Below, piece after piece: positions 19,796-56,921 of a stretch of DNA of 64,000 nt (positions are counted from its first letter, which is position 1; the number at the start of each line of letters is the position of its first letter). The notes below the pieces were generated by a model, which searched no databases, was not told the origin of the DNA, and saw nothing but the letters and a program-made list of their open reading frames with translations. This DNA is from Unio delphinus (lineage: Eukaryota > Mollusca > Bivalvia > Unionida > Unionidae): assembly GCA_029339505.1 (NCBI GenBank), contig JAQISU010000132.1, positions 9,527,001-9,591,000 of the forward strand, given 5' to 3'. Position numbers and translations under genes: made by a program.

Positions 19796-20148
19796 GGCGG
19801 TGATATTGCTAAAATAATGTCAACATTTCCAGAAACTATGGGCTAAATACCCAGGATAAAAATATCTTCCAGGATATGATTATTGTTGTCCGATGTCCTG
19901 ATTTGAGATTCCACTTCACGAACGAGATCAGCCAAAACATGGAGAATATTCAATAAATGCTATTGAACAAGCATGTCACGTTCATGATGTAATGTATACA
20001 AGTAAAGATTTACAACAATGACATATTACAAATGTGAAATTGAGACACTCGTTAAATTCCATAAAGTCTAATAATATTAGAAAACCCAGCTAGCTTCCGA
20101 GTAAGATCCACAATGAAAGGTAAACTAGCATTAGGGGCTGGTAATTAA
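19796..20148 (+). pseudogene. PLA2-like virion protein relic (copy B)
   Basis: A decayed copy of the gene at 34436-34955. Shared pieces appear in order: GGDIAKIM, WAKYPG, YLPGYDY near 19870, INAIEQACHVHDVMYTSKDL near 19960, and a C-terminus ending LALGAGN immediately before the integrase, as in copies A and C. The histidine-aspartate pair of a phospholipase A2 core (CHVHDV) is visible, but the calcium-loop glycines (YSGPG in copy A) are lost (YDYCCP), and stops and a frameshift are present. In related elements this domain belongs to a virion protein thought to act on membranes. Here it is a fossil. Confidence 0.72.
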
Positions 20149-20179
20149 TCAACCGATTATTATTTTTTTTAAAATAGAA

Positions 20180-20690
20180 TCAATTTTGTTAAGGCCCAAC
20201 GTAGCCATGGCCTAGTTATTAGAGGGAGGTCGTGGGTTCGATCCCCGGTCGAGTCATGCCAACACTTACAAAAACGGTACTAACAGCTGCCTCGCTTGGC
20301 GCTCAGCATTAAGTGTTAGGACTGGTCGGTCTGGTGTCAGGATAATGGGACATCATGCGGCTTGATGCCCCAGTGCTAGACATCACAATAAACTGTCTCA
20401 CTGCAGACATCGTAGCGATATGACTGAAAAATAAAGCTACTTTAAAAGTCCTCATCACATCACAGTAAGGCCCAAGAGGATATTCGAAAGGCAGAGGAGA
20501 GATTAGTAAACTCGCCAATGATGCAAATGTTACACGTTATGTTGCTGCAAAATGGATAGCACGACAGGCAATATGTCAAATGTATCTACTGCCACCTAAA
20601 CGAACCCAGCACGTACATTTTGAGGTCAGTGTCCCATGTAAAGTGTACCAGACAGATATTTTGTTTTCACCACATGATATGATCACAACT
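20180..20690 (+). pseudogene. Polinton-type integrase N-terminal relic (copy B)
   Basis: After the SINE the plus strand resumes with GPRGYSKGRGEISKLAND, then YVAAKWIARQAICQMYL, PPKRTQHVHFEVSV and QTDILF, parallel to the first 80 residues of copy A (SPRGYWRGKTAISKL, HFDVSV, QADILF). The aspartate in TDILF matches the first catalytic residue of a D,D,E integrase core. The copy stops abruptly near 20690, where it meets a minus-strand virion gene that is also truncated, so a deletion probably removed both 3' ends. Identity to copy A looks only moderate, so they are not a recent duplication. Confidence 0.8.
20190..20475 (+). mobile_element. tRNA-derived SINE (family 2) with target duplication
   Basis: SINE body 20200-20465: box A-like GCCATGGCCTAGTTATTAGA, box B GGGTTCGATCC, then the family 2 body (CAGCTGCCTCGCTTGGCGC, GACATCGTAGCGATATGACTG). 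A 10-bp duplication TAAGGCCCAA lies on both sides (20190-20199 and 20466-20475). It inserted into the 5' end of the integrase relic, so it is younger than that element. Confidence 0.93.
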
Positions 20691-21310
20691 GGTATTTTAA
20701 GTTCATCGGGTTTATCATTTTTACCAATAAATTTATCGATGGCATCATCAGCTTTTCTACAATTTTTACGTAACGTAGTAAATTGGTCGATATGAGCGTC
20801 ATAATTGGATCGCAACTTTGACAAATTATCCATGGAGGTTTTTATCTCTGTTAACTTTGGTGTGGTTACCGGTGGATTTCCAAAGAAATTCAACATATGT
20901 TTGTCACTATTGTCAATTATACTTCTTTGTAATTCAGAAAACTAATCGAATTTAGTTATTATATGGTCGTCATATTCATCGCGTAGTTATTTTTGGTTCT
21001 AAATTGTTAATTCTATCCACAATAGTTGAAATGAGAACATCTGGTTTGAGATTACCCTGTTCGGAAGAAAAACGCGATAGCATTTTCCGTTTCACCGCGT
21101 TATTTAACTAAAATATCATCCAGGGAAACATTACTAGTTTTCAATTTACCCTGACGATCTTGAAATACAACTATTTCATTGGGATCAACACTTGTGAGGT
21201 TTAAGATTTCAAATATTTCATCTTTTATTATTTATTTTTTACATCACCAGTTGCAGATATTTCCGTGGTAGGTTTTATCAGACTTGAGAGGGATCTTACC
21301 CAAATATCAA
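20690..21310 (-). pseudogene. Coiled-coil-like virion protein relic (copy A)
   Basis: Minus-strand frames carry IFEILNLTSVDPNEIVVFQD, QGKLKTSNVSLDDILVK and, after shifts, ISTIVDRINNLEPK and a charged helical stretch (LTEIKTSMDNLSKLRSNY). The phrase VFQD-x-QGKLKT recurs as VIVFQD-x-QGRLKT in the copy at 60.2 kb, so this is a conserved gene of the element. Its position, convergent with the integrase and downstream of the protease, is the same in both copies. Function is unknown; the heptad-like spacing suggests a structural or scaffold protein. It is broken by frameshifts and truncated at the integrase junction. Confidence 0.6.
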
Positions 21311-21315
21311 TCATG

Positions 21316-21757
21316 TTATTTTATATAATTTCTCTCTAAAAAGCGATTACTCGTATATTCGTGTATGGTTTTATGTGGTGGTTTTCCCGATGATGAAATA
21401 GCGTTGAGGACATTTAATACTTCAATGCCGCATATTGGTGGGTCATTCATTTTCTGAGTTGGTAGCATGGAATACCAGATAGGAGTTTTTAAGTGGTGTG
21501 TATAACGCATAAACTTTTTTAGGTGGCGCTAATCCATATGAATCAAAATAGATGATCACACGCGGATCAATCGCGTATGCAACCCAGTGAGTTCCAGTTC
21601 CGGTGCTGTTATCGAGATTAATGATACTGGTTTCAGTGTTGTTTGGTTGTTTTAGTAATTGATCTCTCATAAAAACACCTCTAAAGTTTTTTATCGCTAG
21701 TTTTTTAGCAGCATCGAGTAAACAAAAAGTTGACATCGGCGACAATGTCTTTGACAT
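21316..21757 (-). pseudogene. Adenain-like maturation protease
   Basis: Cysteine protease of the adenovirus maturation-protease fold, as encoded by Polintons and adintoviruses to process virion proteins. The start is taken at the Met at 21757, ahead of the conserved AAKKLAIKNFRGVFMRDQLL. Catalytic landmarks are visible: GTHWVAY (His), YFDSYG followed by PP (acidic residue) and, in a different frame at the end, PPICGIEVLNVL (Cys), so a frameshift near 21490-21510 separates His/Asp from Cys. It lies between the small hydrophobic gene (start side) and the coiled-coil relic, all on the minus strand as a virion-gene block. No in-frame stop precedes the shift. Confidence 0.85.
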
Positions 21758-21762
21758 TATTG

Positions 21763-22126
21763 TTAGTAAACTGTTCCTAGTCTCAGGCCCTTTCCGCTGT
21801 ACCATGAATACGGAGTTCCTGGTAGTCTAAGACCCTTTCCTTGGTCGTTTCTTTTTTTTTTGTACCCTTTTTTGGTAGCTTTCCTTAGTGCCATCCCAGC
21901 CTCTGTACCAACGGCTCCTAGCGCGGCAGCCATTGCTACCGCTGGGGACACTGCCGCAATCAACGCTGGTAACGCAGCGAAAAGTGGAAATATACACCTG
22001 TTTTTATCATGTTCTTAATCGCAGCCGCAGAAAGAGTGATCTGAACACCTTTTTATATTTGATGGCATCATTGAAGTGTTTTATCTGACGAGCAGTCAGT
22101 GATAGTTTGTTCTGACCACCAGACAT
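21763..22126 (-). pseudogene. Small hydrophobic/basic virion protein
   Basis: The ATG at 22126 opens MSGGQNKLSLTARQIKHFND; two frameshifts later come a hydrophobic Ala-rich segment (FAALPALIAAVSPAVAMAAA), a basic stretch (ATKKGYKKKR) and GKGLRLPGTPYSWYSGKG, where GKGLRL occurs twice. A hydrophobic segment followed by a basic tail between protease and major capsid genes resembles the minor, processed virion proteins of adeno-like viruses, but no family can be named firmly. The stop region lies just outside the protease start. Confidence 0.6.
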
Positions 22127-22265
22127 CTGATTGTACTACAGCGATATTGTGGTTCCACGTTTTTTAGCTGATTCCGATTGCATTTTTTTAATTTGACCAT
22201 TTAAGTTAACGTAACACTAACATGACTATCTGACATTTTATTTAATACGAGATTGATATAATCGT

Positions 22266-23776
22266 CTACATATTTTCCACTGGTGCATCAATTACTCTCA
22301 TTCGTCCACCAACACCTTCGAGTGGCATTGACTTGTCACTGAGTATGACAACAATTGCTTTGCATCTACCGCCAACAGCAGGAAGTCATGTAACACGAGC
22401 TCGGAAATGTATGTCAACGACGGATTGTCTGGTTAAGTCAAGATGTTACAGCGAAAAGTAGTAGATGGGATATAGGTTTTTAAAATCCCACTGTGATATT
22501 TGCAGACCAGTATCCACATTATTATCGCGTCGCATAAATGTCAGCAAGCGATGATACGCTCGTGCTATTTGGTTTTATCCGTAATTAAGTAAAATATCTT
22601 CGGATGGTTCTTGTTGGCCATTTATCCTCAACGATACTTCATTAATACCCAATTGATCAAATATCATATGGCTGTGCAATTGTGAGTTTAATCACTCCAT
22701 ATCCTGTAGCGCAATAAATATATGTCGTGGCGCAGTAACACTCTGTTTTGATGCCAGGTGCCATGTAAATACACCATTAACAGATGATTGCATAATATCC
22801 GCTGTTGTTCTTAGCTATGATATCATCGATTTTCCTCCATGATCCATAAATGATAGTAATTGTTCTTCTACGGTGATTGATGGAGTCACTACTGACATCC
22901 ACGGTGATAGTTTTGTTATATTTACTTTACCACGGTCAGTATCTGGATTTGCAGGATATGCTGGAATCCTCCAGATAGCATCATTATCATCGCCTTTTCG
23001 CACGAGTACTACTGTATGTTTCGCTCCATAGATAACTTTTGTCACATTTCTACAAAATCCACATATATGAGATAGTGGAATCGCGCGTGAAAATAATCTA
23101 CGTCGTCCTTCCAACACTGATATGCGTGTTGCAGCTCCTAGGTTGTAATTAGGATCATTATTTATAATCATATTCTCGACAACAACATTAGCAGCACCAG
23201 CATTATTTTTTGGTTGTCTTATAACATATGGAGTCGGTCCAGCGCAATCATTAATATCCTTAGAGAACATTATAGACGGACCGGCCGATCTTGTAAAATC
23301 ATCATAATATCTTGGTAAACCCACTATTGTTGTGGCAACATCAACATCACATTCTATGGATTCAATCTCTCTGTTATCAATCATATATCTTGCACTTTCA
23401 AATAGCACCATGATACCATTATTGACAAAGCCGACATTGGCATTTAGGTCATACGGTGCTGGTACAGCAGGAGTATTAGCAGCTGTTACAAGATCTCCTT
23501 CAGCGGGTAGAAAGTATTTGCTGGTATCATGGACCTGAAGTTCGATTCTTGATCGACTATCTGGTTGTATTGCATTATAGGAATAATACTGATAATCCCG
23601 GACAGAATCATTCTTCTACTGGGGCATCTAAATCGAAGGCTGTGTCAGGGGACGATTTGAACATATTATAATATATTTCTTGATCTAAATCGCCATCTCG
23701 CTCGCGATTTCAAACCACTTACCGCTATCATATTTGCAGTAATATTCCCCTGAGTGTAATATCTATCGATGTTCAT
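22266..23776 (-). pseudogene. Candidate double jelly-roll major capsid protein
   Basis: The intact centre (22815-23411, 198 codons) reads IMVLFESARYMIDNREIES, TTIVGLPRYYDDFTRSAG, RLFSRAIPLSHICGFCRNV and KVIYGAKHTVVLVR. These look like the major capsid protein of Polinton/adintovirus-like elements, which would form the icosahedral shell. In the same frame upstream come RSRIELQVHDTSKYFLP and YQYYSYNAIQP; downstream, in other frames, WDFKNLYPIYYFSL and EGVGGRMRVIDAPVENM end at the stop at 22266-22268. The total span would give roughly 480-500 residues, near the usual size. At least four frameshifts or stops. The start at 23776 (MNIDRYYTQG) is tentative. A structure prediction of the open centre would test the call. 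Confidence 0.7.
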
Positions 23777-23784
23777 CGATGCTA

Positions 23785-24116
23785 TTTTTTGCGTTGTTTA
23801 TTATTTTGCTAATACTCGCAGGCATAATTTCCGTAGATGGTAGTGGCCCCATTGATTTTATCGCCAGTGGTTTCTTTCGTCACCTTACTAACGCTAGTAG
23901 TTTTTCTTTAGCCGCGAGAAATGCTTTTCCGGCAACATCACCAACAGCGCTAATACCCTTATCACGAATAACATCAATAGCTTTCATTGATAATTGTTTT
24001 GCCATTGGTGCTAATTTTGGAGTCATTCTTGCAAATAACCCTGCAATGGTACTGCCGAGACCATCTCCATAGTACGCTCTATAAACAGGCAATAGTGAGT
24101 TTACTATGCAAGTCAT
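23785..24116 (-). pseudogene. Putative minor capsid protein
   Basis: From ATG 24116 the frame reads MTCIVNSLLPVYRAYYGDGL, GSTIAGLFARMTPKLAPMAK and DVAGKAFLAAKEKLL, then a stop at about 23880, after which another frame continues with charged sequence to about 23785. A Gly-rich amphipathic region followed by an Ala/Lys-rich helix, placed directly upstream of the major capsid gene, matches small minor-capsid or cement-like proteins in related elements. This is inferred from composition and position. A less likely alternative is a pVI-like membrane-lytic protein. Confidence 0.5.
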
Positions 24117-24229
24117 AGTTGGTTTATTGTGATTGTAGTGTATGATCATCTTATTTAAATGACATATATCTAATCGCGAAATTCTTTTGATTTTCAATAA
24201 AATGTCACAGATAAAGTCATCAAATTAAT

Positions 24230-24510
24230 CACTATGGTAACCTCCGCTGGCTCATCAATAAACTCTCGATATACACCAATATCCATTATACAACCCTCAA
24301 ACAGTTGTCTGCAGATATCAGCGGTCTCTATAATTATTTCCGGTGAGTTATTTCCAGCTCGTTTCCCTCCTACGAGAATTTCTAACCGTGATATATCCCC
24401 GAGAATATTACTAGGACAACGAACAAGACTACTACCTGAAGACCCCTTGGGGCTCCACTTTGAGAAAAACCCTTACAGGAAGGACCAGTTGAACCCTGCA
24501 AAGAGGATTG
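24230..24510 (-). pseudogene. Unrecognised virion-block relic
   Basis: A minus-strand frame carries NILGDISRLEILVGGKRAG and CRQLFEGCIMDIGVYREFID, without a recognisable family. It sits between two other minus-strand genes of the virus-like block and probably belongs to it. Confidence 0.4.
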
Positions 24511-24512
24511 TG

Positions 24513-25339
24513 CTATATCAAAAAGTTTTGATTGCTCTGGTAATCTAAGAAATCCAGGGTCCGATTTCTTCTAAAAGATGATTCAGCTTTTTTTATTTCA
24601 TCCATAAATTCATTATATGTTTTATCTTTATCCGATGCCCTAGATGCACATGTAAACACGACATAATTCATTATACCATGGTTGTTTATCAGGGAGATTA
24701 TAATCAGTGTGGATATAATTTCTTCTCTGATGAAAACTCTTAACGACAAATTCGACTATTTCTTTATCAGAATTGAATTTCATATATTTCATTTTATCTA
24801 ATTTACCCCGAAGAAATTTATCATTGAATGCAACTCGTGCACGAAAAATATCACTCTCTTCTTCCTGTTCAATATCATCCTTCTTTTCTTCAATAATATC
24901 ACCTAGTCGTTCACGTTGTTCTTGTTCACGTTGTTCTTGTTCTCGTTGTTCATGTTGTTCTTGTTCAAGTCGTTCTTGTTCAAGTCGTTCTTGTTGTTTT
25001 TGTTCAAGTCGTGTAATATATCACCAGGAAGTGTTTTTAAAGATTCCTTTGCTTGCTTGGATCTTTTTGCTACTTTTTTAAGTACAGGAAGAAGGGTCAG
25101 TTTTTCCCTCGTTGTTCCTCAGGAATATCTCCCCAAATGGCTTTTGTCGTTCTCGATAAGACTTTCGCGGTTGCAGTGGTTATTGGTTTGAATAATTGTT
25201 CGGTAAACGTTGTGAAAGCGGTTTGAAATTCTTGTCTCGTTTGGAGCTTATTTCGAACGGAATCACAAACCGGAATAAATCTCTTAATCGCAGCTAATCT
25301 CTCGCGGGTTAATCTAGTTGTTAGGGCTTCACCTACCAT
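24513..25339 (-). pseudogene. Gln/Glu-rich coiled-coil protein of the virion block
   Basis: The ATG at 25339 opens MVGEALTTRLTRERLAAIKR and FIPVCDSVRNKLQTRQ; the frame stops at 25097. Continuing frames give LPVLKKVAKRSKQAKESL, a long Glu/Gln/Arg run (EQEQHEQREQEQREQEQRER) predicted to form a coiled coil, then ARVAFNDKFLRGKLDKMKYM and DKEIVEFVVKSFHQRRNYIH, ending in a frame that contains YNEFMDEIKKAESSFRRNR (24513-24749). The low-complexity run encodes repeated CAAGAACAA-like triplets and explains the Cys/Ser-rich shadow frame on the other strand. The role is unknown, probably structural. At least two frameshifts. Confidence 0.55.
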
Positions 25340-25417
25340 TGTAAATTAATATACGATCTAAATTGTAAGTGAAAAATCCACAGATAGCTACGTGTTCAAT
25401 TTATTCATGTGAAACTG

Positions 25418-26539: not shown

Positions 26540-27271
26540 TTATGATTATATATGATTATATATGATACGATTATATATGATTATATATGATATGATATGA
26601 TATGATATATGATATGATATGATATGATATGATATGATATGATATGATATGATATGATATGATATGTCATGATATGATATGATATGATATGATATGATAT
26701 GATATGATATGATATGATATGTCATGATATGATATGTCATGATATGATATGATATGATATGATATGATATGATATGATATGATATGATATGATATGATAT
26801 GATATGATATGATATGATATGATATGTCATGACATGACATGACATGACATGACATGACATGACATGACATGACATGACATGACATGACATGACATGACAT
26901 GACATGACATGACATGACATGACATGACATGACATGACATGACATGACATGACATGACATGACATGATATGATATGATATGATATGATGAACTCCATTCG
27001 CTCTTAGGTGTTATTCACATCTTATTGCGCCTAGAGATATTATGCAATTTAGGATATGATATGATATGATATGATATGATATGATATGATATGATATGAT
27101 ATGATATGATATGATATGATATGATTTCCATTCGCTCTAAGCTGTTATTTACATCTTATTGCGCCTAGAGATATTATGCAAGTTATGATATGATATGATG
27201 AACTCCATTCGCTCTAAGGTGTTATTCACATCTTATTGCGCCTAGAGATATATATGCAAGTTATGATATGA
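26540..27271. repeat. Pentanucleotide satellite with interspersed 70-bp units
   Basis: (GATAT)n and (GACAT)n pentamers cover about 26575-26985, with further (GATAT)n at 27052-27123. They are punctuated by copies of a unit containing CTCCATTCGCTCT, GTGTTATT and CACATCTTATTGCGCCTAGA near 26988, 27125 and 27198. MSCHV/SYHII reading frames are artefacts of the period-5 array. Confidence 0.95.
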
Positions 27272-28108
27272 TTATTGTCACGTGCTTAGGCTCGAATAAG
27301 CAGTAACACAGAAAGAGTGAAAACTAACAAGCTTGTGTAAATTGAACAATGAATATATTAAGTACAATTATTTTCATAAAAATAAATAAACTTACAGTTT
27401 TAGAGAATCAAATCCAACATTAATCCAATATAGAATTAACAAAAATAATCCACTAATGGAATTGTAAGAGTCCTGATAAATAAATGTTCTAATAGTTCCA
27501 GGTTCGAATCTTGACGATGTAATCCAAAATGGTTGACAATGTCACGTGATGCAGTTCTTGTTTAATTATCATCCAAATGAATTATGATCACATGTTTTCT
27601 CCTCCAAATAGATAATAAATCTTCTTCCTTCAATGATTTGACACAATGTCCAGAATAATTATAACTCAAATAAATATACACAACTAATATCTTAAAGCCC
27701 ATAGATTCTACTGTATTATTCTATCCCAAACAACAGTCTATATAACCGTTTTTCTTAAGTAAACAAGTGATCACGTGATTTTCTAGAAATTGATAGAAAG
27801 TCAGAGGAATAGTCTACCTTCACCTAGTCACGTAATAATAAAATGATCCAGAAGAAAATAAGCCACGAATTACTAAAAATAAAAAGTTGTCCTTGAAATT
27901 AACCAATAGTTTTAGAAGCTTGTTGACAATGTCCAAAGCAAGGTCAGGAATTAGATCAACAAGACAAGGTCAAAACTTATTTACAATTAGAGTGTAGGTC
28001 ATCCTGAATTTACCAAAAAAATCTCCCAATTAATGAATATTAAACCCTAAATGACAAATTTGGATTTAACAATAAAAAATAAATTAAATCCAATAACCGT
28101 AACATTAT
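27272..28108. mobile_element. Probable solo LTR, 829 bp, with TTAT target duplication
   Basis: A non-repetitive block 27276-28104 interrupts the satellite. It begins TGTCACG and ends CGTAACA, near-perfect short inverted termini with the TG...CA ends of an LTR. TTAT flanks both sides (27272-27275 and 28105-28108). No coding sequence, primer-binding site or polypurine tract is adjacent, as expected of a solo LTR. A non-autonomous DNA element remains possible. Confidence 0.65.
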
Positions 28109-28989: not shown

Positions 28990-29690
28990 TAGATGTAAAC
29001 GAATTAAATTCTATGTCCGGTTCTCTTGGAAATCGCTGATTCATATATTTGTTCTGCAACAAATCGTACTTAGGTTCTACAAATATCAAAATATCTACCG
29101 GCTTCATTCATTTATTTAAATACTCTTTCTTCGTTAGTTGCTGTGTTAAATTATTTTATAGGTTTCGCATTTTTCGAGTGTTTTCCAGTCCCTCCTCGTT
29201 TGGAATTTTCACTCTGAGTAATAGACTGTAGATTCGATAAAGAATTGTTCTTAGAATTGGAATCAATATGATCGATTACAAACCCATCTTTTATCAATCT
29301 ATGGAAACACTCGTATGCGATTCTGCGACAGTAATATTGTTTCCCTCCAGCACCAAACATAAGATATCCAAGACCATTGTCCGTCCCTATTGGTGTCTGA
29401 CAATACCACCACGAGATGCTTCATAATCGATGATCACGGAATGTGGTTGATTATTTGTGTGATCAATAACAAAAACATCTTTGATCAATCCGTTAAATAC
29501 CTCATATACGAAACGATGATTACGATATTTCTTCTTCCCAGCACCAAACATCAAATACCCCTGATTACTCACCACACCAACTGGTTTATTCAGTCTGCGG
29601 TTTCTGACAATACCTTCACGAGACGCTTCACAATTGCTGATCACGGGATATGGTTGAAATTCTTGGTTTATTTATATACTAAATAATATT
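28990..29690 (-). pseudogene. NUMOD/HNH homing-type endonuclease with duplicated module
   Basis: Read from 29690, the minus strand carries a NUMOD4-like start (VISNCEASREGIVRNRRLNK), GYLMFGAGKKKYRNHRFVYE and a truncated HNH start (DVFVIDH). The same module then repeats: DYEASRGGIVRHQ, then in a second frame GYLMFGAGGKQYYCRRIAYE and a fuller HNH core (FVIDHIDSNSKNNSLSNLQS, ITQSENSKRG). A NUMOD1-like helix-turn-helix follows with SMNEAG-type sequence (VFK-x-MNEAGRYFDIC). Such enzymes cut DNA at specific sites and often ride in viral genomes. It diverges from the PolB frame and lies inside the virus-like region, so it was probably part of the element. Frameshifts and stops show it is inactive. 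Confidence 0.7.
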
Positions 29691-29872: not shown

Positions 29873-30072
29873 CGACTAACCCCGCACACCTACCCCATAT
29901 CGTATGCCGGGAAAAAGGCCCAAAACTCCCACGACGTACGCTTTGTAAATTATATCCACAGAATTCATTTCTGCATGATTTGTTACAAGCGGTTACTGAT
30001 CCTATCATAAGCCATTTGCAATGATTCATTATATAATAAATTCTTTATTTAAATACTTGTTTTAATTATAAT

Positions 30073-32250
30073 ATGGAGGAGTTCGAGAGACTATCGAAAA
30101 TTACGCCTTGGAAAAATGTTGAATTCGATCTCGATAGTCTCCACTGATGTACCAAAGGGTCTAATAAGTGATAGAAGCATGATAGGTAGAATCCGTGATA
30201 GTTTTAATGAATTCAAGCGCGATGGAGCATCTCACTGTTGGTCAACATTTCGAATTGCTGGTAGTGTTGATGCTACCATGAACAATGAAAGAGCAGCTGT
30301 GATAATCTCACATCTTGACAAGAAAAAGTATTTTTTTTTAAGTGAAATTCATTATCCGCTCAGAAACGGGAAATTGGATTATACGCGACAAATTTGAACC
30401 CATCCTGAAAAATAAGAGAACTGTCACTGTGAGTCAGGATTCCAAACCAGGAATTCTGACCGGGATTGACAAACCGTATTACGAGAGATTCTATTATGTA
30501 ACCGCGGTTGTTTATGGGATCTATCCGATAAATTATAAACCGAGTTTTGAAAAATTAAAACCCATGAAATATTTGTCGTTGAATTGTGTAGCAGAACGGA
30601 TAATAGAGCATTTTACAAATGCGTTGTGTGGTAACAAATTGACGGATCGAAGACGCAGAAAAAACGAATGGGGATTAACAGTCAAGGAGAGCAGAACAAC
30701 AATTCAAAATGTGTCCACGTTAGAACGGATACTAAAATTTCCAATAACCGCAGCGACAGTAACAGGCAAGATATTATATAAACCGAAATATAAATCGAGA
30801 GGATCTCCAATCAAAATTATTGACCATAATGCACACGAGTGGACATCTGCGGTAACAATATTTCCGCGGGATAGAACCATAAAATACTACACGAGAAATT
30901 TATTTGATTTTATTTCTCAGTCAAGTAAAAACGATCCTGTGTCAGTGTGGTTATTTCAGAGTTTTGAAGACGAAGAGGGTAAATTCGATCAATTTGTAAA
31001 ACCCAGTGGCGAATTATATCGTACTGAAACCCTCCACAACGAGATGAAAAAACTAGCTAGTGGTTTTTCAACGGAATACGATGAACAATTACTAACAAAC
31101 TGTTTTACAATACCGTCAGTTGCAGCTAATTTCACGAGAAAGAAAAATCTATGGTTTCCAACACGCGCAGAATTTCTCTCAGATACCCAAGTTAGTTGTG
31201 TTGATTATGGCCAATGTGGATTATGGGAAACAAAATATGACCCCAAAAGTATTATTTCGATTGATATGATTGCGTGTTATCCAGGGAGTTTTCTCGGGTA
31301 CGGAGAATGCTCTAAGTATTTTAAACGATTTGGACATCCGACACATGAGATGACCCGTGTTGCGATTAATGGACCACTGCCCGATTTTGATTTAACCGGA
31401 TTCGCTCGTGTGGTATCATTTGAATTGGCTAAAGGACTTTATTCGTGTTGTTATAGTTGGTTTGTTAGACACATCTCTGAAAAACACTGGATGCCAATAG
31501 TGTTATTACGGTATATGATTGATTCTAAAATGCTGATATCGCTGCTTGTCAGTAAAGCAATTATATCATATCGGAAACAAAGTGAAGTCTGGTTACCACA
31601 ACCCGATAGTCTAGATAGTATAATCAGCGAAGACAAAAACAATTTCCTAATCTAGACGAAGAATATATCGTGAAATGGTCTAAAGGAATCTTTGAAGTTA
31701 GAAATAAACACGCAAAAAGATCTCGGAATAAGAATAATTGGTAAGTTCACACAGGGTGGAAAATACGACCATAAACGACATTCTTTGCAGTAGATTATAT
31801 ATGATGCTGAATACGATTTTATAATCGCAGATGTAACATCTAGGGGTATATATGTCAATCATAAAGACGCTTTCTTGTCAGATGGAACCAAATTCGTTGA
31901 AATTGTTACTTATAACGACGAAGAAAATCCTCAGTATACTTACTTAAGGTCGTCTATGCTGGCTTGTGCTTCTCTTAATTTACTTTCGATGATAAATATA
32001 TTTCCTAACACTGCGGTTAGAGTCGCCACTGATTTATTTTATATAGACGTAAAACATAAAGAAGCAGTGGCTGAATTCACTAATTCAGACGAGAGTTGTG
32101 GATCATGGAGAATTAAAAAGGAAATACTGCCTGATTACTCCAAATCAGCAAATGTTACAATCGAAAACAATTACTTGAAAAATAATCAGATATCAGAACT
32201 ATCTAATGTACCCTCGATATCCGATCCAATATGTAGATATAAAACCAGTT
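30073..32250 (+). pseudogene. Family B DNA polymerase region of a PolB-helicase-HNH gene
   Basis: Replication protein of the virus-like element. The ATG at 30073 opens MEEFERLSKITPWKNVEF; frameshifts near 30140 and 30360 lead into the 437-codon frame ending at 31655. Polymerase landmarks in order: ISIDMIACYPGSFLG (palm motif A, about 31255-31300), HPTHEMTRVAINGPLP, then in a later frame GKFTQGGKYDHKR (motif B region, about 31740) and TAVRVATDLFYID (motif C, about 32010-32042, where TDL stands where TDS is usual). An N-terminal exonuclease is not obvious by eye. A stop at 31655 and two more shifts break the frame. The same translation frame runs on into the helicase without a new start, so this is one fused gene. 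Confidence 0.8.
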
Positions 32251-33190
32251 ACCTAAATGGCTGTGGTGGGTCAGGGAAGACGACTCGTGCAATTGAATTT
32301 TTTCGAGGGAAATCAAACATGACATAACACCAACACACAGACATGCAAGAGAGATGAAACAAGGAATTAAAGCTTACATTTATCACAGTTTCTTTCGATG
32401 GAAAGGTGACGAATGGACTCCTGATCGAATGGGCGAGAAATATATTCCTGAAATCCTCATTTCGGATGATATATGCACAGTGTCGTTGGATGTATTACAA
32501 AAGTTTCTCGATTGGTTATTACTAGCGAATACAAAAGTGATAATGTGTGGCGATCATGGTCAACCACCACCATTTGTCCGTTTATCCCCACATAATTGGC
32601 TGAAGAGTTTTGTAGATTATTATGAAGAAATTAGTACTGATTATAGATCACTTGATAAACAATTACGCGAGTTCAAGAAACTAATCAGATTACAACTGGA
32701 TAGAATCCAATGTGAAATAGCACGTGAAATAATTTCAGAAACCCCATTAAATGATTTTTTGGAAGCGTGGAGACCAAACGATTTGATAGTGGCAAGTAGA
32801 AAGATAGTCAGAGACATACTTCAGATGAAGTTATTTAACACACATAAAGAAAAATTTGCAACACTTCCAGTGCCATTGTGTTATAGACCCAAGGATACAC
32901 GAAGACAAAATATCAAAGTTGATATTCCAGGCTTGACAGAGTCAAGGAAGCAGATTCTAGTGTTAAATGATATTGTGTTGGTTGATATCAAATTCGTCGA
33001 AGATGCATTGCATGCTGAAAAATCCCCATGGAAGCTAGGATACGCAGCGACGATACATTCTTCGCAGGGGTTGACTATATCCAATACAATTGTTTGGATC
33101 ATAGATAATCGCATCAAGTGATCGAGTTTAGTTTACCTTGCAGTGTCCAGAGTACGAAGAATAATCAACTTCAAAGAGTTGTTTTAGATT
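32230..33190 (+). pseudogene. Superfamily 1 helicase region fused to PolB
   Basis: Directly after the polymerase comes SYLNGCGGSGKTTRAIEFF (Walker A, about 32250-32300); a small frameshift near 32325 follows, then TPTHRHAREMKQ. The open frame 32354-33121 has EILISDDICTV (motif II, DD where DE is usual), VIMCGDHGQPPPF (motif III), YAATIHSSQGLTI (motif V) and, in another frame after the stop, VYLAVSRVRR (motif VI). The order matches RecD/Pif1-like SF1 helicases. Polymerase and helicase in one chain would unwind and copy the element's DNA. The fusion is seen directly in the continuity of the 31875-32327 frame, which contains both polymerase motif C and Walker A. Confidence 0.85.
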
Positions 33191-33494
33191 ATAATGACAT
33201 CATCATCAATGATATTGTCAGCGATGATATAATCAGAAAAAAAACTCACTGGCTATAAATAGCGGGATAAAAAAAAATAATAGAAAATTTGACATTGATG
33301 CCGAATTTATAATTACACTAAAACAACAACAGAATAATCACTGCGCGAGTTGTAATCGTATAATGCGTTGGTGTTGGTCGGATAAAGACCCCAGCCAATT
33401 TACTGTAGACAGAAAGAATAGCAGTGTTGGTCATACCAGAGATAATGTGATGCTGACTTATCTTGAGTGTAACAGACGCAGAGGTGATAGTTAA
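33191..33494 (+). pseudogene. C-terminal HNH nuclease of the PolB-helicase gene
   Basis: The plus strand continues with a charged linker (NDIVSDDIIRKKTHW, other frame) and then HCASCNRIMRWCW, DPSQFTVDRKNSSVGHTRDN and YLECNRRRGDS with a stop at 33492-33494. The C-x2-C, DR...GH...N and C-x2-C-N-R pattern is a zinc-bound HNH (endonuclease VII-like) fold. No ATG separates it from the helicase and it lies on the same strand about 120 bp after motif VI, so I read it as the C-terminal domain of the same protein. Shifts mean this is inferred. Its 3' end meets the 3' end of the integrase on the opposite strand. Confidence 0.7.
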
Positions 33495-34428
33495 GACCAT
33501 GTGGCGGTAACTGAGTATCCTCGGGTATCACTTGTAATCGTTCACAAGTAAATCCTCGCTGAGGAGCAGTTTAATCCAATCTATAGACTGGCGGTCTACC
33601 CGTAGATCGTGTTATGCTAGATATTTTGTGTAGTGACACTCCAAATAGGATCAATAGTTCTTTTTTTGCCACTTTCAAGCTCTCCTGGTTCATATAAATA
33701 TCTAACAGTGACATTGCCGAGTATTGGTTGTTTTGAAAAATCATTTTGTGGTTTTATGGGTATATACTTTTTTTAATTGCGTTGTTAGGTTTCATATTAA
33801 TTCTTCGAGTAATCTCATTATTTAGTGTGGTAATTACACCTGGTAATCTCTTGACCCATTCACGAGATCGTTTATTCTGAATAGATTCCTTCACGTATTG
33901 ATATCCAAATAACCGCTCAGCAAGTGTCCGATTAAATCGTTCAACAATTGCCTGATCACGATGTAATGCAGTACGTCCTCGTCTGATGGTGACATTATGA
34001 TGCTTCATTGTTGATAACACTGCACCCTGAAATTCCTTGCCAGGATCAACTTGTAATTGATTTGCCCAATGCAGAGGACCCCGCCGATAAATCCTTTCAA
34101 ATGTAGAAGCCACCTCAGTTGATGACTTTGTCTTTAGCTGCTCTGCTTATTTGTATCAACTCGCAACATCAACTACGGTTAGCGCATACTTGTAAACACC
34201 ATCATGCAGCAGAAATAATATATCAGCTTGATGAACCTCATTAATGACGCTGACATCAAAATGCGAGAAGTTAATTTGTTTAGGCGGTGGTAGGTAAATT
34301 TGCCATATCACCTGTTTGGATAACCAATCCGCTGCAGTGGTATTTTGCACCTTTGCAGCGCTAGCGAGTTTACTTATTGCTGTTTTACCCCTCCAGTATC
34401 CTCTTGGGGAATAATAAATAGATTCCAT
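33495..34428 (-). pseudogene. Retroviral-type DDE integrase (copy A)
   Basis: Integrase of the Polinton/adintovirus type, which would insert element DNA into chromosomes. The ATG at 34428 (MESIYYSPRGYWRGKTAISK) is chosen because it follows the PLA2 stop by only 7 bp. Core landmarks: HFDVSV and QADILF (first Asp), ALTVVDVAS, a stop at 34156, then LQVDPGKEF (second Asp) and DQAIVERFNRTLAERLFGY (Glu, spacing fits D,D35E). The C-terminal part continues with LPGVITTLNNEITRR, YLYEPGELESGKK-like sequence in another frame, and PPVYRLD, a beta-barrel or chromo-like tail. Stops and at least one shift. Related fragments occur at 20.2, 44.8-48.4 and 57.3-58.1 kb. Confidence 0.88.
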
Positions 34429-34435
34429 GATGTTA

Positions 34436-34955
34436 TTAATTACCAGCACCCAACATCAATTTACTTTTCATTGCCGATTTTATCAACCATGAAGCCAACT
34501 TTTCTTTGAAGGATTTATCAGTGATAGAATTCAACGCATGAATCAATTTCACATCTGCGATATGTCTGTGTTGCAGATTACTGCTTTTATAAGCAACATC
34601 ATGAGCATGACATGCCTTATCAATAGCGTTTATTGGATATTCACCGGGTCGGGGTTGGTTTTGATCATCGACTCTGATATCGAGTCTGGTACCAGGTCCA
34701 GAATAACTATACCCTGGAAGATGTTTTTCTCCCGGATATTTTGCCCAAGGTGTTCCTGGTAATTTTACTAACTTGGCTGTAATATCACCTACTCGTTTTT
34801 TTTAAATCCTTGATTTTATCAAGGGAAACAAATCTAAATTTTTTGGTACCACATTGTACACACTTACCAGCAAGTGCTGATCTGTTATTTTTAGTTTAAA
34901 TCGTCAAGTCATTTGTGCTAGTACGCTTCTCATATTTCACACAATATAGATCCAT
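34436..34955 (-). pseudogene. Zinc-ribbon plus PLA2-domain virion protein (copy A)
   Basis: The ATG at 34955 opens MDLYCVKYEKRTSTNDL, followed by a stop and then LAGKCVQCGTKKFRFVS: a small zinc-ribbon resembling DUF5679, with one cysteine of the first pair changed to Tyr. After a shift near 34800 come LPGTPWAKYPGEKHLPGYSY, YSGPGTRLDIR (calcium-loop-like) and GEYPINAIDKACHAHDVAYK (His-Asp catalytic pair), i.e. a parvovirus VP1/adintovirus-type phospholipase A2 domain, ending MLGAGN-like just before the integrase. Known PLA2 domains of this type help virions breach membranes; that role is assumed from family. Its start lies 17 bp from the ATPase start on the other strand, so the two probably share a divergent promoter. 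Confidence 0.82.
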
Positions 34956-38552: not shown

Positions 38553-38594
38553 ATTTTATCATAAAACTGAATGGTTTATGAAAAGCATGCTGCT

Positions 38595-40566
38595 CTGTGT
38601 TCATCTAAGTGTCCTACAAAAGCTCTTTGTTCATCTAAGTGTTCTACAGGGGTTTGTTGTTCATCTAAGTGTTCTGCAGTGTTGTTCATCTAAGTGTCCA
38701 ACAGTGGTTCTTTAATCATCTAAATGTCCTAATGTGGTTCTTTGTTCATCTAAGTGTCATAAAGTGGTTCTTTGTTCATCTAAGTCTCCTACATTGGTTT
38801 TTTGTTCATCTAAGTGTTGTACAGTGGCTCTTTGTTCATCTTTGTCTCCTACAGTGGTTCTTTGTACATCTAAGTGTCCTATTGTGGTTCTTTATTCATC
38901 TAAGTGTCCAACAGTGGTTCTTTGTTCATCTAAGTGTCCTACAGTGGCTCTTTGTTCATCTATGTCTCCTATAGTGTTCATCTAAGTGTCCTATGGTGGT
39001 TTTTTTGTTCATCTAAGTATCCAACCTTGGTTCTTTGTTCATCTAAGAGTTATATTGTGGTTCTTTGTTCATCTAAGTGTCCTAATGTGGTTCTTTGTTC
39101 ATCTAAGTATCTGACAGTGGTTCTTTGTTCATCTAAGTGTCCTATGGTGGTTCTTTGTTCATCTAAGTGCCCCAAGGTGGTTCTTTGCTCATCTAAGTAT
39201 CCTATGGTTGTTTTTTGTTCATGTACGTATTCAACAGTGGTTCTTTGTTCATCTAAGTGTCCAAAGGTGGTTCTTTGTTCATCTAAGTGTCCTAATGTGG
39301 TTCTTTGTTCATATAAATGCCCGAAGGTGGTTCTTTGTTCATCTAAGTGTCCTATTGTGGTTCTTTGTTCATCTAAGTGTCCTACTGTGGTTCTTTCTTC
39401 ATCTAATTATCTAACAGTGGTTCTTTGTTCATCTAAGTGTCCTATGGTGGTGCTTTGTTCATCTAAGTGTCCTACAGTGGCTCTTTGTTCATCTATGTCT
39501 CCTATAGTGGTTCTTTGTTCATCTAAGTGTCCTATTGTGGTTTTTTTGTTCATCTAAGTATCCAGCATTGGTTCTTTGTTGATCTAAGAGTTCTATTGTG
39601 GTTCTTTGTTCATCTAAGTGTCCTAATGTGGTTCTTTGTTCATCTACGTATCTGACAGTGGTTCTTTGTTCATCTAAGTGTCCTATGGTGGTTCTTTATT
39701 AATCTAAGTGTCCTATGGTGGTTCTTTGTTCATCTAAGTGCCCCAAGGTGGTTCTTTGCTCATCTAAGTATCCTATGGTGGTTTTTTTGTTCATCTAAGT
39801 ATCCAACCTTGGTTCTTTGTTCATCTAAGAGTTATATTGTGGTTCTTTGTTCATCTAAGTGTCCTATGGTGGTTTTTTTGTTCATCTACGTATCCAACCT
39901 TGGTTCTTTGTTCATCTAAGAGTTATATTGTGGTTCTTTGTTCATCTAAGTGTCCTAATGTGGTTCTTTGTTCATCTAAGTATCTGACAGTAGTTCTTTG
40001 TTCATCTAAGTGTCCTATGGTGGTTCTTTGTTCATCTAAGTGCCCCAAGGTGGTTCTTTGCTCATCTAAGTATCCTATGGTTGTTTTTTGTTCATGTACG
40101 TATTCAACAGTGGTTCTTTGTTCACCTAAGTGTCCAAAGGTGGTTCTTTGTTCATCTAATTGTCCTAATGTGGTTCTTTGTTCATCTAAGTGTCCTATTG
40201 TGGTTCTTTGTTCATCTAAGTGCCCGAAGGTGGTTCTTTGTTCATCTAAGTGTCCTATTGTGGTTCTTTGTTCATCTAAGTGTCCTACTGTGGTTCTTTC
40301 TTCATCTAATTATCTAACAGTGGTTCTTTGTTCATCTAAGTGTCCTATGGTGGTTCTTTGCTCATCTAAGTGTCCTACTGTGGTTCTTTGTTCATCTAAG
40401 TGTCCGAAGTTGGTTCTTTGTTCGTCTAAGTGTCCAACAGTGGTTTATTGCTCATCTAAGTGTCCAACACTCATTCGTTGTTTATCTAAGAATCCGATGA
40501 TGGTTCTCTTTTCATCTAATTGTCATACAGTGGTTCTTTGTTCATCTGAGTATCCTACTGTGGCAC
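38595..40566. repeat. 30-bp minisatellite, about 66 units, with higher-order repeats
   Basis: The unit is close to TTCTTTGTTCATCTAAGTGT plus a variable 10 bp (CCTATGGTGG-like). Because 30 is a multiple of three, all three forward frames stay open over long stretches, giving 207- and 256-codon frames of LCSSKCPTVV-type decamers. A block at about 39000-39410 recurs 873 bp downstream with the same order of variant units; the offset becomes 903 bp after one extra unit. No start context, signal sequence or flanking exon supports translation. Confidence 0.95.
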
Positions 40567-40645: not shown

Positions 40646-41500
40646 TCATGCATGTATCTTCATATGTCTTTTCAAAGTACTACTCTGGATAAATATTTGG
40701 TCACAAATTCCACATTTGAATGGTTTATTTCCCGAATGCGCCATCATGTGCTGCTTCCATGAGGTAGTGTGGCCAAATATCTGATTACAAATTTCACACT
40801 TGAATGGCTTATCTCCAGTATGCACTCTCATGTGCTGTTTCAAATTAGCACTCTGCCTAAACATTTTATAACAAACTTCACATTTGTATGGTTTATCTCC
40901 AGTGTGTACCTTCATGTGCATCTTCAAACCATCACTTGTACTAAACATTTTAACACAAACTTCACATTTGAATGGTTTATATTCAGCATGTACACCTAAA
41001 TGCCTCTTCAAATGACTTATCTGTGTAAATGTTTTATCACAAGTTTCACATTTGAATGGTTTATCCCCAGTATGTATCAACATGTGCATCTTTAAATATG
41101 CACCCTGCCTAAACAATTTATTACATTCTTCACATTTGAATGGTTTATTGCCAGTATGTACACTCTCGTGCATCCTCAAAGTACTACTGTGCCTAAACAT
41201 TTTGTGACAAACTTCACATTTGAATGGTTTATCTCCAGTATGTAAACCCATGTGCTCCGTCAAATGATTGCTCCGTGTAAATGTTTTATCACAAATTTTA
41301 CATTTGAATGGTCTCTCTCCAGTATGTACTAACATGTGCATCTTCAAAGTCACATTTTGCTTAAATACTTTATGACAAACTTCACATTTGAAGGATTTAT
41401 CTCCAGTATGAACCCTCGTGTGCTTCGTCAAAATACAATTGTTTTTTAACATTTTATGAAAAATGTTATATTTGAACGGTTTCTTTGAAGTATGTATCAT
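40646..41500 (-). pseudogene. C2H2 zinc-finger gene 2, 5'-truncated
   Basis: A 284-codon frame with nine canonical C2H2 fingers and one degenerate first finger (FKYNIFHKMLKNNCILTKH) in which both zinc-binding cysteines are lost. The frame opens inside what was a linker (MIHTSKKPFKYN), with a stop just upstream, and the upstream DNA shows none of the conserved 5' flank of genes 1 and 3, so the true start and some fingers are missing. Helices shared with relatives include TRSNHLTEH, RQSANLKQH and GHTTSWKQH, the last two matching gene 3 most closely. It could still be expressed as a shorter DNA-binding protein. Its 3' end lies about 80 bp from the 30-bp minisatellite. Confidence 0.8.
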
Positions 41501-42424
41501 GTACTGCTAGTATAAGTTGGGTCGGGAATCCGGGCACTTTTTCACATCCGGGCATTTCAAGTGCATAGTTACGACCGCCAAGGTGAAAACAACCGCCAGT
41601 GTTCTGGTTACTTGAGTAACGTGTGCCGTGTGGGGGACATTTACACATTTTAAGATATGCCTAAGATTTGCAGTGTTGGTGGGTACACAAACTATCATAT
41701 GCAAAATAAAAATTTAAATAATTATAAACTCTTCCTAAATTACCAAATACGTCTTTTCTCTCTCGCCAATAACTACATAAATATACAAGTATTTATTATA
41801 GGTACAAAAAGGTTTAAATAAACAAATAAGCTTCAAATTCTACAATTAACCGCTCACCTTTTCTGTCCTTATATCTTTCCCAGATTATAAATAGCATCGA
41901 ACCACGCTTATTTCCTTCACACTCCCTCGTCCATATTTGCCTTTATAATGCAAACTCCAAATTGTTCTTTTAAATGATTCACAGCTCTGATTGTGTGTCA
42001 TTTCTTTAATCTCTTTAATCATGAGAACGAACAGGATACTACAGTAATTAGCAGGTTTTAATTAAATTCACATACACATACAAATGGAAATTAAAAAACT
42101 AGAATCTGTCTTCTTCTTTTTAAAATTGTCATATGTTGACTACGTTTAGACGTGGGTGGGGTATTTGAATGACAAATTAACCAATAATAGCGTATTAAAT
42201 GACAATAAGTTCGTTTCACAAACATGCTGTAGGTTAAAAAATAATTACATTATTTTATTCTCACTGAAGGTTGAAAAACTGACAATATATAGTAACGCAC
42301 ATCGCGATATGAACCAACATGCTGTGCTTAGAAATAAATATATGCGCTTATAAGCAATGGCGATACGTACAAAGCGACAAAGCGAGTCGAAGTAATATCG
42401 ACTCCGGTACCTATGATAGTTTCC
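41501..42424. other. No gene recognised
   Basis: Two overlapping minus-strand frames at 41466-41704 show no motif. The upstream part is GC-richer than its surroundings (41510-41650); no promoter element is recognisable. Confidence 0.4.
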
Positions 42425-44990: not shown

Positions 44991-47900
44991 ACGCGACCTC
45001 TTACAATATGACGGACCCTCATTAATTGGATTAAATGACTATATCTTGGTTCTAGATAATACATTGTGCTCAAGACTGAAAGAACTGGGAATACATTCAT
45101 CAATACTTAAATGTAAACGGAAGCAAAAAAAAAACGTTCTTTCAAAGCAGGCCGGCGTAGAACAGGAAGAAAAATGCCAGGTATCTCCCTTTCGCCCGTA
45201 ACAGATAAACAATTTAAAAATTCTGCCATTAATTTTAATATCCAGGTTCAAATTCCTCTTAAATCGTCAACCATTGTGTCATCTGTCCCAGGGATACCGC
45301 TACGTATTGCATTACTAAACGCTCAATCAGTAGGATCACCGAAAAAGCGCACAGAAATTGATAATTTTATCAACGAACAGAATATCGACGTGTTCTTTCT
45401 GTCAGAAACATGGTTACAATCGTCAGGTGCTGAACATAAGTTTCCGGATTTAACACCCAGCGATTACTCCATCAAGTTTTTCCCCCGCAACTCTCGTGCA
45501 GGTGGAAATGCTGTAATTACAAAGAATTCCATGATCAAATGCCTTAAGTATAACACAACCTTCAATTTCAGCCACACATCGTTTGAACTAGTCCAATCAA
45601 CGCTCACACTGGAACAAAGGGCAGTCCATTTTTTTTTCTGTCTCTAAAGCCCCCCCCCCCCCCAAGTAGGAAAAACAAGCTGACTGAATCTCTCGTTTTG
45701 GAGCAGTTTCCAATCTTCTGAAGTATTGAAATTCGATAGGTGGTAACCTAATTATTCTTGGAGATTTCAACTTTCACTTTGACTGTCTTGGAAAACCATA
45801 CACGTCAAAACTCCTAGATTCCATTCATGTTTTCAATCTTAAACAGTCAGTTAACCAACCCACCCATTAACTTGGTCACATTTTAGACTGGTTTCTTTAT
45901 AGACCTGATGATAGTATTCTGCAATCCATCCTTGTAATCCACGAACTTGCATCGGATAACCTCTGCATTGTATGCCAGCTCGACGTATCAGTCCCTAACC
46001 CTCCACCTCTACTTGCTACTAAGAGAAACCTCCGTATGATAAATAAAACCAAATTCATGCATGACATCCAAGAACACCTAACCACTTTCTTATATCCAAC
46101 AGCGGAATAACTTGACAACTGCCTGCGTTCATTGCTTGAAAAACATGCCCCAGCCACCAAATGCCGAGTATCAATCATAAAAAAGTGTTCTCCATGATAT
46201 AGCAGTGTTAGGGACCAGCTTCGCACTGCTAAAAGACATCGCCGAAAAGCAGAGAGGCTTTGGCTTTCCACCAGACTCACTATTCATAAACAAATAGATG
46301 AACCCGCTAAGAAGAACGTCAAAAACATAGTCCATTTAGCCAAATTATCCCACTACAGTACAAAGATCACAGAGAATTCCAGCTGCAAAGAGCTCTTCGA
46401 GATAACTAACAAACTAATGTCAAAGAACAAATGTACACCACTACCAAAAACCTTCTCTCCACTAGAACTTCGGACCAATATGCAAATTTCATCCGTGACA
46501 AAGTACAAACCATTAGAGATTCGCTTTACAGCACACTTTCAACTGACTCGTCACCATACAGTTATGATGCAGAATTTCAGCGACAACCTTTAGGGTCATT
46601 TGAACCTGTTTATAATGATTTAGTAAGGACAATCGTGATGAAAAGTGCACCAAAGTCTTGTAAACTTGATCCAATTCCAACATCACTGCTGCTTGAGTGC
46701 TTAGACCGAATATTTCCTTCACTAACTGATATTATTAATATATCTCTCTCATCGGGGGAACTCCCACCATTTTTCAAAACTGCCATCGTAAAGCCACTGC
46801 TGAAGAAACCAACACTTGACCATAACGATTTAAAGAACTACCGCCCAGTTTCTAATCTCCCATCCATATAAAAAAAAGATTAGAAAAGATTGTTTTAACC
46901 AAACTTGTATCTTATTTGAATTTAAACAGTCTTTTAAGCAATGTACCGTCTGCATATCGCCCTTGCCACAGTACAGAAACTACTCTCTGAAAGTATTTAA
47001 TGACATTCTCTCTGCTTTGGACAGTGGAAAGATTACAGTCCTCACTCTCCTGAATTTATCTGCAGTATTTGACACAATAAACCATGATATATTACTTCAC
47101 CGTCTCCAGCATGTATTTGGCATTCAGAATATATCCATACAGTGGTTCACGTCCTACTTAGTCAACAGGACACAAATTACATCTGCAAATGGAATACACT
47201 CCAGCCCAGTTGAGGTATGTTGTGGTGTTCTTGGACCTGTTCTCTTCATTCTGTACACTTAGGCGTTACTCTAGACAATATTCTCACATTGTACCAATAT
47301 GTCATGAACATATGCAAGGCTGCATATCTTGAATTGAGACGCATCAGTTCAATTCGTAAATATCTTTCAGTTGATGCCACTAAAACACTTGTGTGTTCAT
47401 TAGTAATTTCAAGACTGGACTATTGTAACTCAATTCTGTCTGGTTCGTCACAATATTTACTCCAGAAACTTCAAAAAGTTCAAAACACAGCTGCACGGAT
47501 CATCTTTAGAGTACCTCGATCAGAGTACACCTCACCACTGTTATGTTCCCTACATTGGCTATCAATTCGATACAGAATCAAACACAAAATTTGTTCTCTG
47601 TGCTGTGTTTCAATGACAGACTACAGTCCAACATACCTATCCAGCCTCACCCATGTGTACACACCAGTTAGATCCTTACGCTCTTCTTCTGATAATTGTA
47701 TACTCATTGTTCCCACGGTGAAAACAAAGTCATATGGACAACATTCGTTTGCATACCAGGGCCCGGCGACGTTGAACGAATTGCCCATTGAAATTAGACA
47801 CAAAGGCAACAGTGGACCCTTTTAAGAGTGCTCTTAAAACTCGCCTGTTTCGACTGCAGGGACAAACTGAGAGAACTAATTGTGTTTTGTATCTTATATG

Positions 47901-48069: not shown

Positions 48070-48073
48070 GTAA
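44991..48073 (+). mobile_element. L2/CR1-like LINE inserted in integrase copy D
   Basis: Endonuclease starts LRIALLNAQSVGSPKKRTEI and DVFFLSETWLQ (45174-45647 frame), with LGDFNFHFD near 45760 and HILDWFLYRP near 45880. Reverse transcriptase has AIVKPLLKKPTLDHNDLKNY followed by RPVSNLP (46780-46860), LSAVFDTINHDILLHRL (47050-47100) and LGPVLFILYT (47230-47262). Immediately after this the frame jumps to LGVTLDNILTLYQYV, so the segment with the catalytic FADD/YADD box is deleted. The C-terminal part (LVISRLDYCNSILSG) runs to 47825 and the 3' end is (ATT)n at about 48030-48070. It sits exactly between two integrase parts; short AAACC/AACCC-like sequence at the edges may be a target duplication. 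Confidence 0.85.
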
Positions 48074-48076
48074 CCC

Positions 48077-56912: not shown

Positions 56913-56921
56913 GATTATTAT

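What the first reader, a model, noticed from the sequence alone, without database searches (positions are those of the whole stretch)
30073..33494. Fused PolB + SF1 helicase + HNH replication gene
One plus-strand gene relic carries polymerase palm motifs (DMIACYPGSFLG; RVATDLFYID), then within the same uninterrupted frame (31875-32327) a helicase Walker A (GCGGSGKTT), helicase motifs II-VI and finally an HNH nuclease (DPSQFTVDR...GHTRDN...ECNRRRG). Polintons normally encode a stand-alone protein-primed PolB. A polymerase, helicase and nuclease in one chain would be a self-contained replisome and may define a distinct lineage of virus-like transposon. The polymerase-helicase link is seen directly; the HNH link depends on bridging frameshifts.
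Basis: partly seen in the sequence, partly recalled or inferred. Interest (0 to 1): 0.8.

Follow-up and report, generated by a model that had tools for sequence, protein, structure and literature searches.

The report
Broken polymerase-helicase-nuclease fusion gene
A decayed virus-like transposon gene that once made one protein combining a DNA polymerase, a DNA-unwinding helicase and a DNA-cutting nuclease; the fusion is real and relatives with all three parts in one protein exist, for example in a sea slug, but this kind of fused protein was already described in virus-like elements of other organisms.

Summary

The architecture is not a new lineage. It fits published Tlr1-like helicases (pPolB-S1H fusions): TP, vOTU, palm, SF1 helicase, C-terminal GIY-YIG or HNH (PMC11071308 section 10). 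What seems new is the host range (mussel, sea slug and mycorrhizal-fungus records) and a frequent, co-inherited HNH. The window copy is a pseudogene. Not established: the host, the element's boundaries, palm activity, and placement against Tlr1 or transpoviron sequences.

The parts
30053..30397 (+). N-terminal piece of the replicase, upstream of the vOTU-like domain
   Evidence: HMM of 12 relatives, E 3.1e-11, model positions 10-60
30342..31655 (+). Piece with the vOTU-like Cys (NCVA) and His (HNAHEW) and PolB palm motif A (DMIACYPGSFLG)
   Evidence: HMM E 2e-181, model positions 62-481; motif table; 66.5% identical to P0031
31674..31793 (+). Short palm piece between in-frame stops at 31671 and 31791
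   Evidence: HMM E 3.7e-6, model positions 473-498; stops
31794..32327 (+). Palm motif C (RVATDLFYID) and helicase Walker A (GCGGSGKTT) in one uninterrupted ORF
   Evidence: HMM E 1.8e-58, model positions 504-675; 61.7% identical to P0031
32297..33121 (+). SF1B helicase piece (motifs III and V), in another frame
   Evidence: HMM E 8.6e-120, model positions 678-939; Pfam AAA_19 E 3.4e-5, just below its curated cut-off; 74.6% identical to P0031
33122..33187 (+). Helicase motif VI (YLAVSRVR), same frame as the helicase piece but behind the stop at 33119
33228..33494 (+). C-terminal HNH nuclease piece; ends about where relatives such as P0031 end
   Evidence: HNH-only HMM E 3.1e-20; full HMM E 1.1e-15; 77.0% identical to P0031
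33754..34455 (-). Two pieces that look like a Polinton-type integrase (convergent neighbour); motif reading only
   Evidence: ORFs; no Pfam rve or PDB match; repeated elsewhere in the window. The name is recalled and no call supports it.
34436..34801 (-). Parvovirus-type phospholipase A2 domain
   Evidence: PF08398 E 1.4e-10
21443..21826 (-). Adenain-like protease fragment in the left-hand block; unity with the replicase element not shown
   Evidence: PF00770 E 9e-4, just below the curated cut-off
22815..23615 (-). Double jelly-roll capsid-like fragment in the left-hand block; unity not shown
   Evidence: PF21738 E 6.5e-6, just below the curated cut-off

Best explanation
The locus is a pseudogene of a pPolB-S1H replicase (a 'Tlr1-like helicase') with a C-terminal HNH nuclease, left by a polinton-like virus or virus-like transposon in what is probably a mollusc genome (host inferred, not shown). 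SHOWN: colinear homology over the whole chain, and the same domain order in relatives that keep it in one ORF. INFERRED mechanism: an N-terminal region primes synthesis from a protein residue. A vOTU-like protease domain frees the primer domain. The palm extends along the linear element by strand displacement. The fused SF1B helicase supplies unwinding in place of the exonuclease found in ordinary Polinton pPolB. The HNH cuts DNA, either in homing or target entry or in processing replication intermediates.
Against: No Tlr1, TvV-S1 or transpoviron sequence was available, so membership by phylogeny is untested. H6WBE3 has no name in the tables, and its full-length match has TM-scores of only 0.24/0.26 and rmsd 26.9, so domains match in order but not as one rigid body. 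Profile-profile comparison with phi29 and PRD1 polymerases was not significant (probability 0.2% or less), so the palm rests on motifs and fold. No Pfam DNA polymerase hit was found for five replicase pieces or the 17 of 85 relatives scanned. vOTU and TP assignments rest on motifs and on fold matches with TM-scores of 0.15 or less. Six of 49 homologues that reach motif VI lack the HNH; P0011 and P0027, from the window's own clade, are among them.
Confidence: 0.85

Rival explanations
1. An ordinary Polinton PolB gene with a helicase and an HNH gene merely adjacent or inserted later; the apparent fusion is an accident of decay.
For: The window copy is broken between domains, and canonical Polintons have pPolB without a fused helicase (PMC11071308 passages).
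Against: 35 of 85 homologues carry motif A, motif C, Walker A and HNH in one ORF. Domain distances are congruent.
Confidence: 0.02
2. A member of the same fold class in which the palm is catalytically dead, so the protein is a helicase-nuclease with a structural palm remnant.
For: The first Asp of motif C is absent in all 73 aligned rows. Krupovic 2016 took the fusion palm as inactivated (title seen; paper not held).
Against: Motif A Asp is at least 90% conserved and the remaining motif C Asp invariant in 31 long relatives. PMC11071308 notes that mavirus, pipolin and other polymerases lacking the same Asp are active.
Confidence: 0.2
3. An independent polymerase-helicase-HNH fusion that arose in animals and fungi, convergent with Tlr1-like helicases.
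For: Sequence relatives were not found in IMG/VR viral contigs by the peptide patterns tried or in phage records, although polinton-like viruses carry Tlr1-like helicases.
Against: Same order, same missing Asp, same vOTU-type Cys/His, and an in-order fold match to a 999-aa viral protein. P0081, a distant relative, is colinear over vOTU, palm and helicase (E 3.9e-49).
Confidence: 0.12
4. The HNH is a homing endonuclease passenger attached to the replicase rather than a working part of it.
For: PMC11071308 suggests intein invasion for the nuclease domains of this family. Six of 49 homologues that reach motif VI lack it.
Against: 43 of 49 have it, and its distances track the palm and helicase. 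Intein splicing blocks were not looked for.
Confidence: 0.4

Closest known systems
Tlr1-like helicases / pPolB-S1H fusion proteins of polinton-like viruses, Tlr1 and transpovirons (PMC11071308: section 10 in full, other passages)
   Same: Palm then SF1 helicase in one chain, vOTU-type Cys/His upstream, first Asp of motif C missing, C-terminal GIY-YIG or HNH nuclease
   Different: Reported there for PLVs, a ciliate element and giant-virus transpovirons; here mollusc and mycorrhizal-fungus records, with the HNH in 43 of 49 homologues that reach motif VI
Tlr1 element helicase of Tetrahymena (passages of PMC12721341, PMC3671162, PMC11071308)
   Same: pPolB palm fused to C-terminal SF1 helicase and a nuclease; its element encodes an RVE integrase
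   Different: Nuclease there is GIY-YIG, here HNH
Oxyrrhis marina OmPLV Helicase SF1-pPolB (PMC12721341, passages)
   Same: SF1 helicase and pPolB in one chain
   Different: Helicase is N-terminal and the exonuclease is kept; here the helicase is C-terminal
Mavirus virophage pPolB
   Same: TP-vOTU-palm layout without exonuclease; fold match over 719 columns, low TM-scores
   Different: Its helicase (SF3) is a separate gene
Polinton / adintovirus pPolB (passages of PMC11071308 and PMC11071296)
   Same: Integrating elements with capsid genes and an OTU-bearing PolB
   Different: Polymerase without a fused helicase

Membership tests
Tlr1-like helicase (pPolB-S1H fusion) | Palm domain of the protein-primed PolB type | tested here: met
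Tlr1-like helicase (pPolB-S1H fusion) | First Asp of motif C (DTD) missing | tested here: met
   0 of 73 aligned rows (window row included) have Asp there: 70 Ala, 2 Lys in degenerate rows, 1 Met
Tlr1-like helicase (pPolB-S1H fusion) | SF1 helicase C-terminal to the palm in the same chain | tested here: met
Tlr1-like helicase (pPolB-S1H fusion) | C-terminal homing-type nuclease (GIY-YIG or HNH) | tested here: met
   43 of 49 homologues that reach motif VI; PHROG HNH and endonuclease VII matches in 3 of 4 relatives scanned
Tlr1-like helicase (pPolB-S1H fusion) | vOTU protease with catalytic Cys and His | tested here: inconclusive
   NCVA Cys and HNxHAW His at least 90% conserved; N-terminal fold matches are TP/vOTU-type PolBs by the literature but with TM-scores of 0.15 or less; the PDB alignment of this model did not run
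Tlr1-like helicase (pPolB-S1H fusion) | Terminal-protein-like domain at the N-terminus | tested here: inconclusive
   About 150-260 residues lie before the Cys in most long relatives; no fold assigned
Tlr1-like helicase (pPolB-S1H fusion) | No 3'-5' exonuclease domain | tested here: inconclusive
   phi29 match begins at chain residue 189, after the exonuclease (its position is recalled); a missing match is not proof
Tlr1-like helicase (pPolB-S1H fusion) | Groups with Tlr1, TvV-S1 and transpovirons in palm or helicase trees | not tested
   No named reference sequences were in hand
Canonical Polinton | pPolB without a fused helicase | tested here: not met
   Fusion in relatives
Canonical Polinton | Terminal inverted repeats bounding the element | tested here: inconclusive
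   The longest inverted repeat pair between 17000 and 40000 is a diverged PLA2 copy; no clear TIR seen
OmPLV Helicase SF1-pPolB | Helicase N-terminal to a pPolB with exonuclease | tested here: not met
   Motif C precedes Walker A in the 61 homologues counted

The most novel reading that the evidence does not exclude
pPolB-S1H-HNH replicases form a widespread lineage resident in animals (bivalves and sea slugs) and mycorrhizal fungi. In it the HNH is a lasting, co-inherited third activity of the replication protein, not a homing passenger. That would make it a one-protein replicase of polymerase, helicase and nuclease outside the protist and giant-virus world.
Probability: 0.4. Interest if true: 0.6.

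Novelty: new member of a known kind. Interest (0 to 1): 0.42.

Why it matters
It carries a replicase type described from polinton-like viruses, a ciliate element and giant-virus plasmids into animal and fungal genome records. It also offers 35 one-ORF sequences for asking whether a palm lacking one metal-binding Asp still polymerises, and what a nuclease does when usually fused to a polymerase-helicase.

Tried and rejected
IMG/VR viral contigs: five replicase scans found no relative, nor did the integrase-like and capsid-like pieces; these scans use a few peptide patterns each, so absence is not proven. Phage records: none (P0004 as query). GTDB genomes: one broken copy, L001, on a 3.1-kb contig of an archaeal MAG, most likely misbinned. 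Pfam, NCBIfam and PDB sequence searches do not recognise the palm. hhalign of the family with phi29 and PRD1 polymerases was not significant. The integrase-like pieces were not confirmed by Pfam or PDB. Chance adjacency of domains was rejected. P0081's C-terminal extension looked primase-like to me, but Pfam and PDB gave no support. A first count of motif C used a pattern that demanded Ala; it was replaced by an alignment-column count.

Literature limits: this fusion in molluscs or mycorrhizal fungi was not seen in searches of an open-licence PMC library (listings). Mavericks as such are reported across mollusc genomes (PMC10294476, passages; 'helicase' does not occur there). Krupovic 2016 is not held. 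PMC11071308: section 10 in full plus passages. PMC12721341, PMC12220804, PMC3671162, PMC4642659, PMC11071296 and PMC10294476: passages only.

Full report
OBSERVATION. I kept the pieces apart throughout. An HMM built from 12 relatives (of 29 in hand at that point; several are partial ORFs) hit six ORFs among 1119 from the whole window, in order along the model: 30053-30394 (model positions 10-60, E 3e-11), 30342-31652 (62-481, 2e-181), 31674-31790 (473-498, 4e-6), 31794-32324 (504-675, 2e-58), 32297-33118 (678-939, 9e-120) and 33228-33491 (988-1060, 1e-15). It hit none of 1033 ORFs of the reversed window at E 1 or better. The HNH alone scores 3e-20 with an HNH-only model; the next window ORF is at 0.24.

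STATE OF THE GENE. It is a pseudogene. The frame that runs from 30342 to 32324 has stops at 31653, 31671 and 31791; the helicase frame has stops at 33119 and 33185; the frame differs before 30342, from about 32300, and again at the HNH. Motif VI is present but behind a stop.

RELATIVES. Three protein searches gave 85 homologues (the third scored only the candidates sharing most words). The named ones are Sinanodonta woodiana (freshwater mussel, on a 143-Mb contig), Elysia crispata and Elysia marginata (sea slugs), Gigaspora margarita, Racocetra persica, Racocetra fulgida and Diversispora epigaea (mycorrhizal fungi), a Candidatus Thiodiazotropha MAG and one EukProt entry. The rest are unnamed ENA, JGI or Logan records. 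The Thiodiazotropha hit may be carry-over from its clam host; that is my inference.

FUSION TEST. Of the 85, 61 have motif C followed by Walker A in one ORF. 49 match helicase motif VI, and 43 of these also match the HNH model. Counted without regard to motif VI, 49 of 85 carry the HNH. 35 have motif A, motif C, Walker A and HNH together. Five of the HNH-bearing proteins built the HNH model, so they match by construction. The six that match motif VI without an HNH are P0011, P0027, P0034, P0054, P0069 and P0081; P0011 and P0027 belong to the window's own clade. P0030 (1176 aa) and P0031 (1168 aa), also of that clade, carry the HNH in the same ORF. P0031 matches the four main window pieces at 66.5, 61.7, 74.6 and 77.0% identity. 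Among named hosts, all parts in one protein are seen in Elysia crispata (P0072, P0077); the Racocetra fulgida record P0070 has motif C, Walker A and HNH; the Gigaspora record P0080 has motif C and HNH but no Walker A by the pattern; the mussel record P0004 ends within the helicase. Gene models in eukaryote records may have been spliced by their annotators.

CO-INHERITANCE. Separate maximum-likelihood trees of the palm piece (53 rows) and helicase piece (56 rows) place the window with P0031, P0030 and P0011 in both. Pairwise distances of palm, helicase and HNH in 35 proteins correlate at r 0.87, 0.76 and 0.80, with none of 2000 permutations as high. The three domains have travelled together.

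KNOWN OR NEW. PMC11071308 section 10 describes Tlr1-like helicases as multidomain proteins with vOTU, palm and S1H domains, the first Asp of motif C missing and, at the C-terminus, GIY-YIG or HNH nucleases. The features I could test agree: palm type, motif C (no Asp at that place in 73 aligned rows), helicase position and C-terminal HNH. I therefore file this as a member of that kind, with membership by phylogeny untested. The Oxyrrhis fusion has the opposite order. Cryptophyte PLVs have HNH fused N-terminally to helicases, which also differs. Mavericks as such are known across mollusc genomes (PMC10294476). What I did not find in print, within the searches named in Tried and rejected, is this fusion in molluscs or mycorrhizal fungi.

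MECHANISM. Inferred, following the published view: protein-primed start, vOTU release of the primer domain, strand-displacement synthesis by the palm, and unwinding by the fused helicase, which may compensate for the lost exonuclease (PMC11071308). The HNH could be a homing device, as that paper suggests, or a working part. Its presence in 43 of 49 relatives that reach motif VI and its co-inheritance favour a lasting role but do not prove it. Activity of the palm is unproven.

SURROUNDINGS. Convergent with the replicase lie integrase-like pieces (33754-34455, minus strand; motif reading only, no library support) and a phospholipase A2 domain (PF08398, E 1.4e-10). PLA2 is in the colour key of a figure comparing virophages, polintons and related elements (PMC3671162 legend). 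To the left, on the minus strand, are an adenain-like fragment and a double jelly-roll capsid-like fragment, both just below Pfam cut-offs. Other diverged copies of the PLA2/integrase-like stretch or parts of it occur at 19839-20678, 48073-48363 and 56755-58030, so the window seems to hold remains of more than one such element, and I cannot say that the capsid block belongs to this replicase. No clear terminal inverted repeats were seen (25 longest of 46 pairs shown). The window's own genome could not be searched: that tool did not complete.

Noticed in passing
29151-29671 (-): Two tandem HNH_3 nuclease fragments (PF13392, E 1.3e-9 and 0.0087); the 29154-29420 fragment scores only E 8.4 with the replicase HNH model.
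   Followed up: partly
19839-20678 (+), 48073-48363, 56755-58030: Further diverged copies of the PLA2/integrase-like stretch or parts of it, so several related element remnants seem to lie in the window.
   Followed up: partly
20576-25345 (-): Block with adenain-like and double jelly-roll capsid-like fragments and small ORFs that resemble virion proteins by eye; four of those small ORFs had no significant Pfam match.
   Followed up: partly
P0081 (protein, 1727 aa): Distant relative colinear over vOTU, palm and helicase (hhalign E 3.9e-49) with a C-terminal extension of about 390 aa instead of an HNH; looked primase-like by eye, not supported by Pfam or PDB.
   Followed up: partly
15014-16129, 40646-41506, 48837-49625, 62520-63488: Four zinc-finger-like arrays (C2H2 by eye) that are alike at the DNA level, about 72-81% in long matches.
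   Followed up: no
38594-40563, 58764-59490, 26541-27272: Tandem repeat arrays; the 58.8-kb one has a 66-bp step and 93-97% identity.
   Followed up: no
7373-8011 and 45117-47825: Non-LTR retrotransposon remnants: endonuclease (PF14529 E 1.6e-10; PF03372 E 1.3e-5) and weak RT (PF00078 E 0.0015, below cut-off).
   Followed up: partly
L001 (JAADDH010000070.1): Broken copy of the same replicase on a 3.1-kb contig binned to a Diapherotrites archaeon, most likely a misbinned eukaryotic or viral contig.
   Followed up: partly
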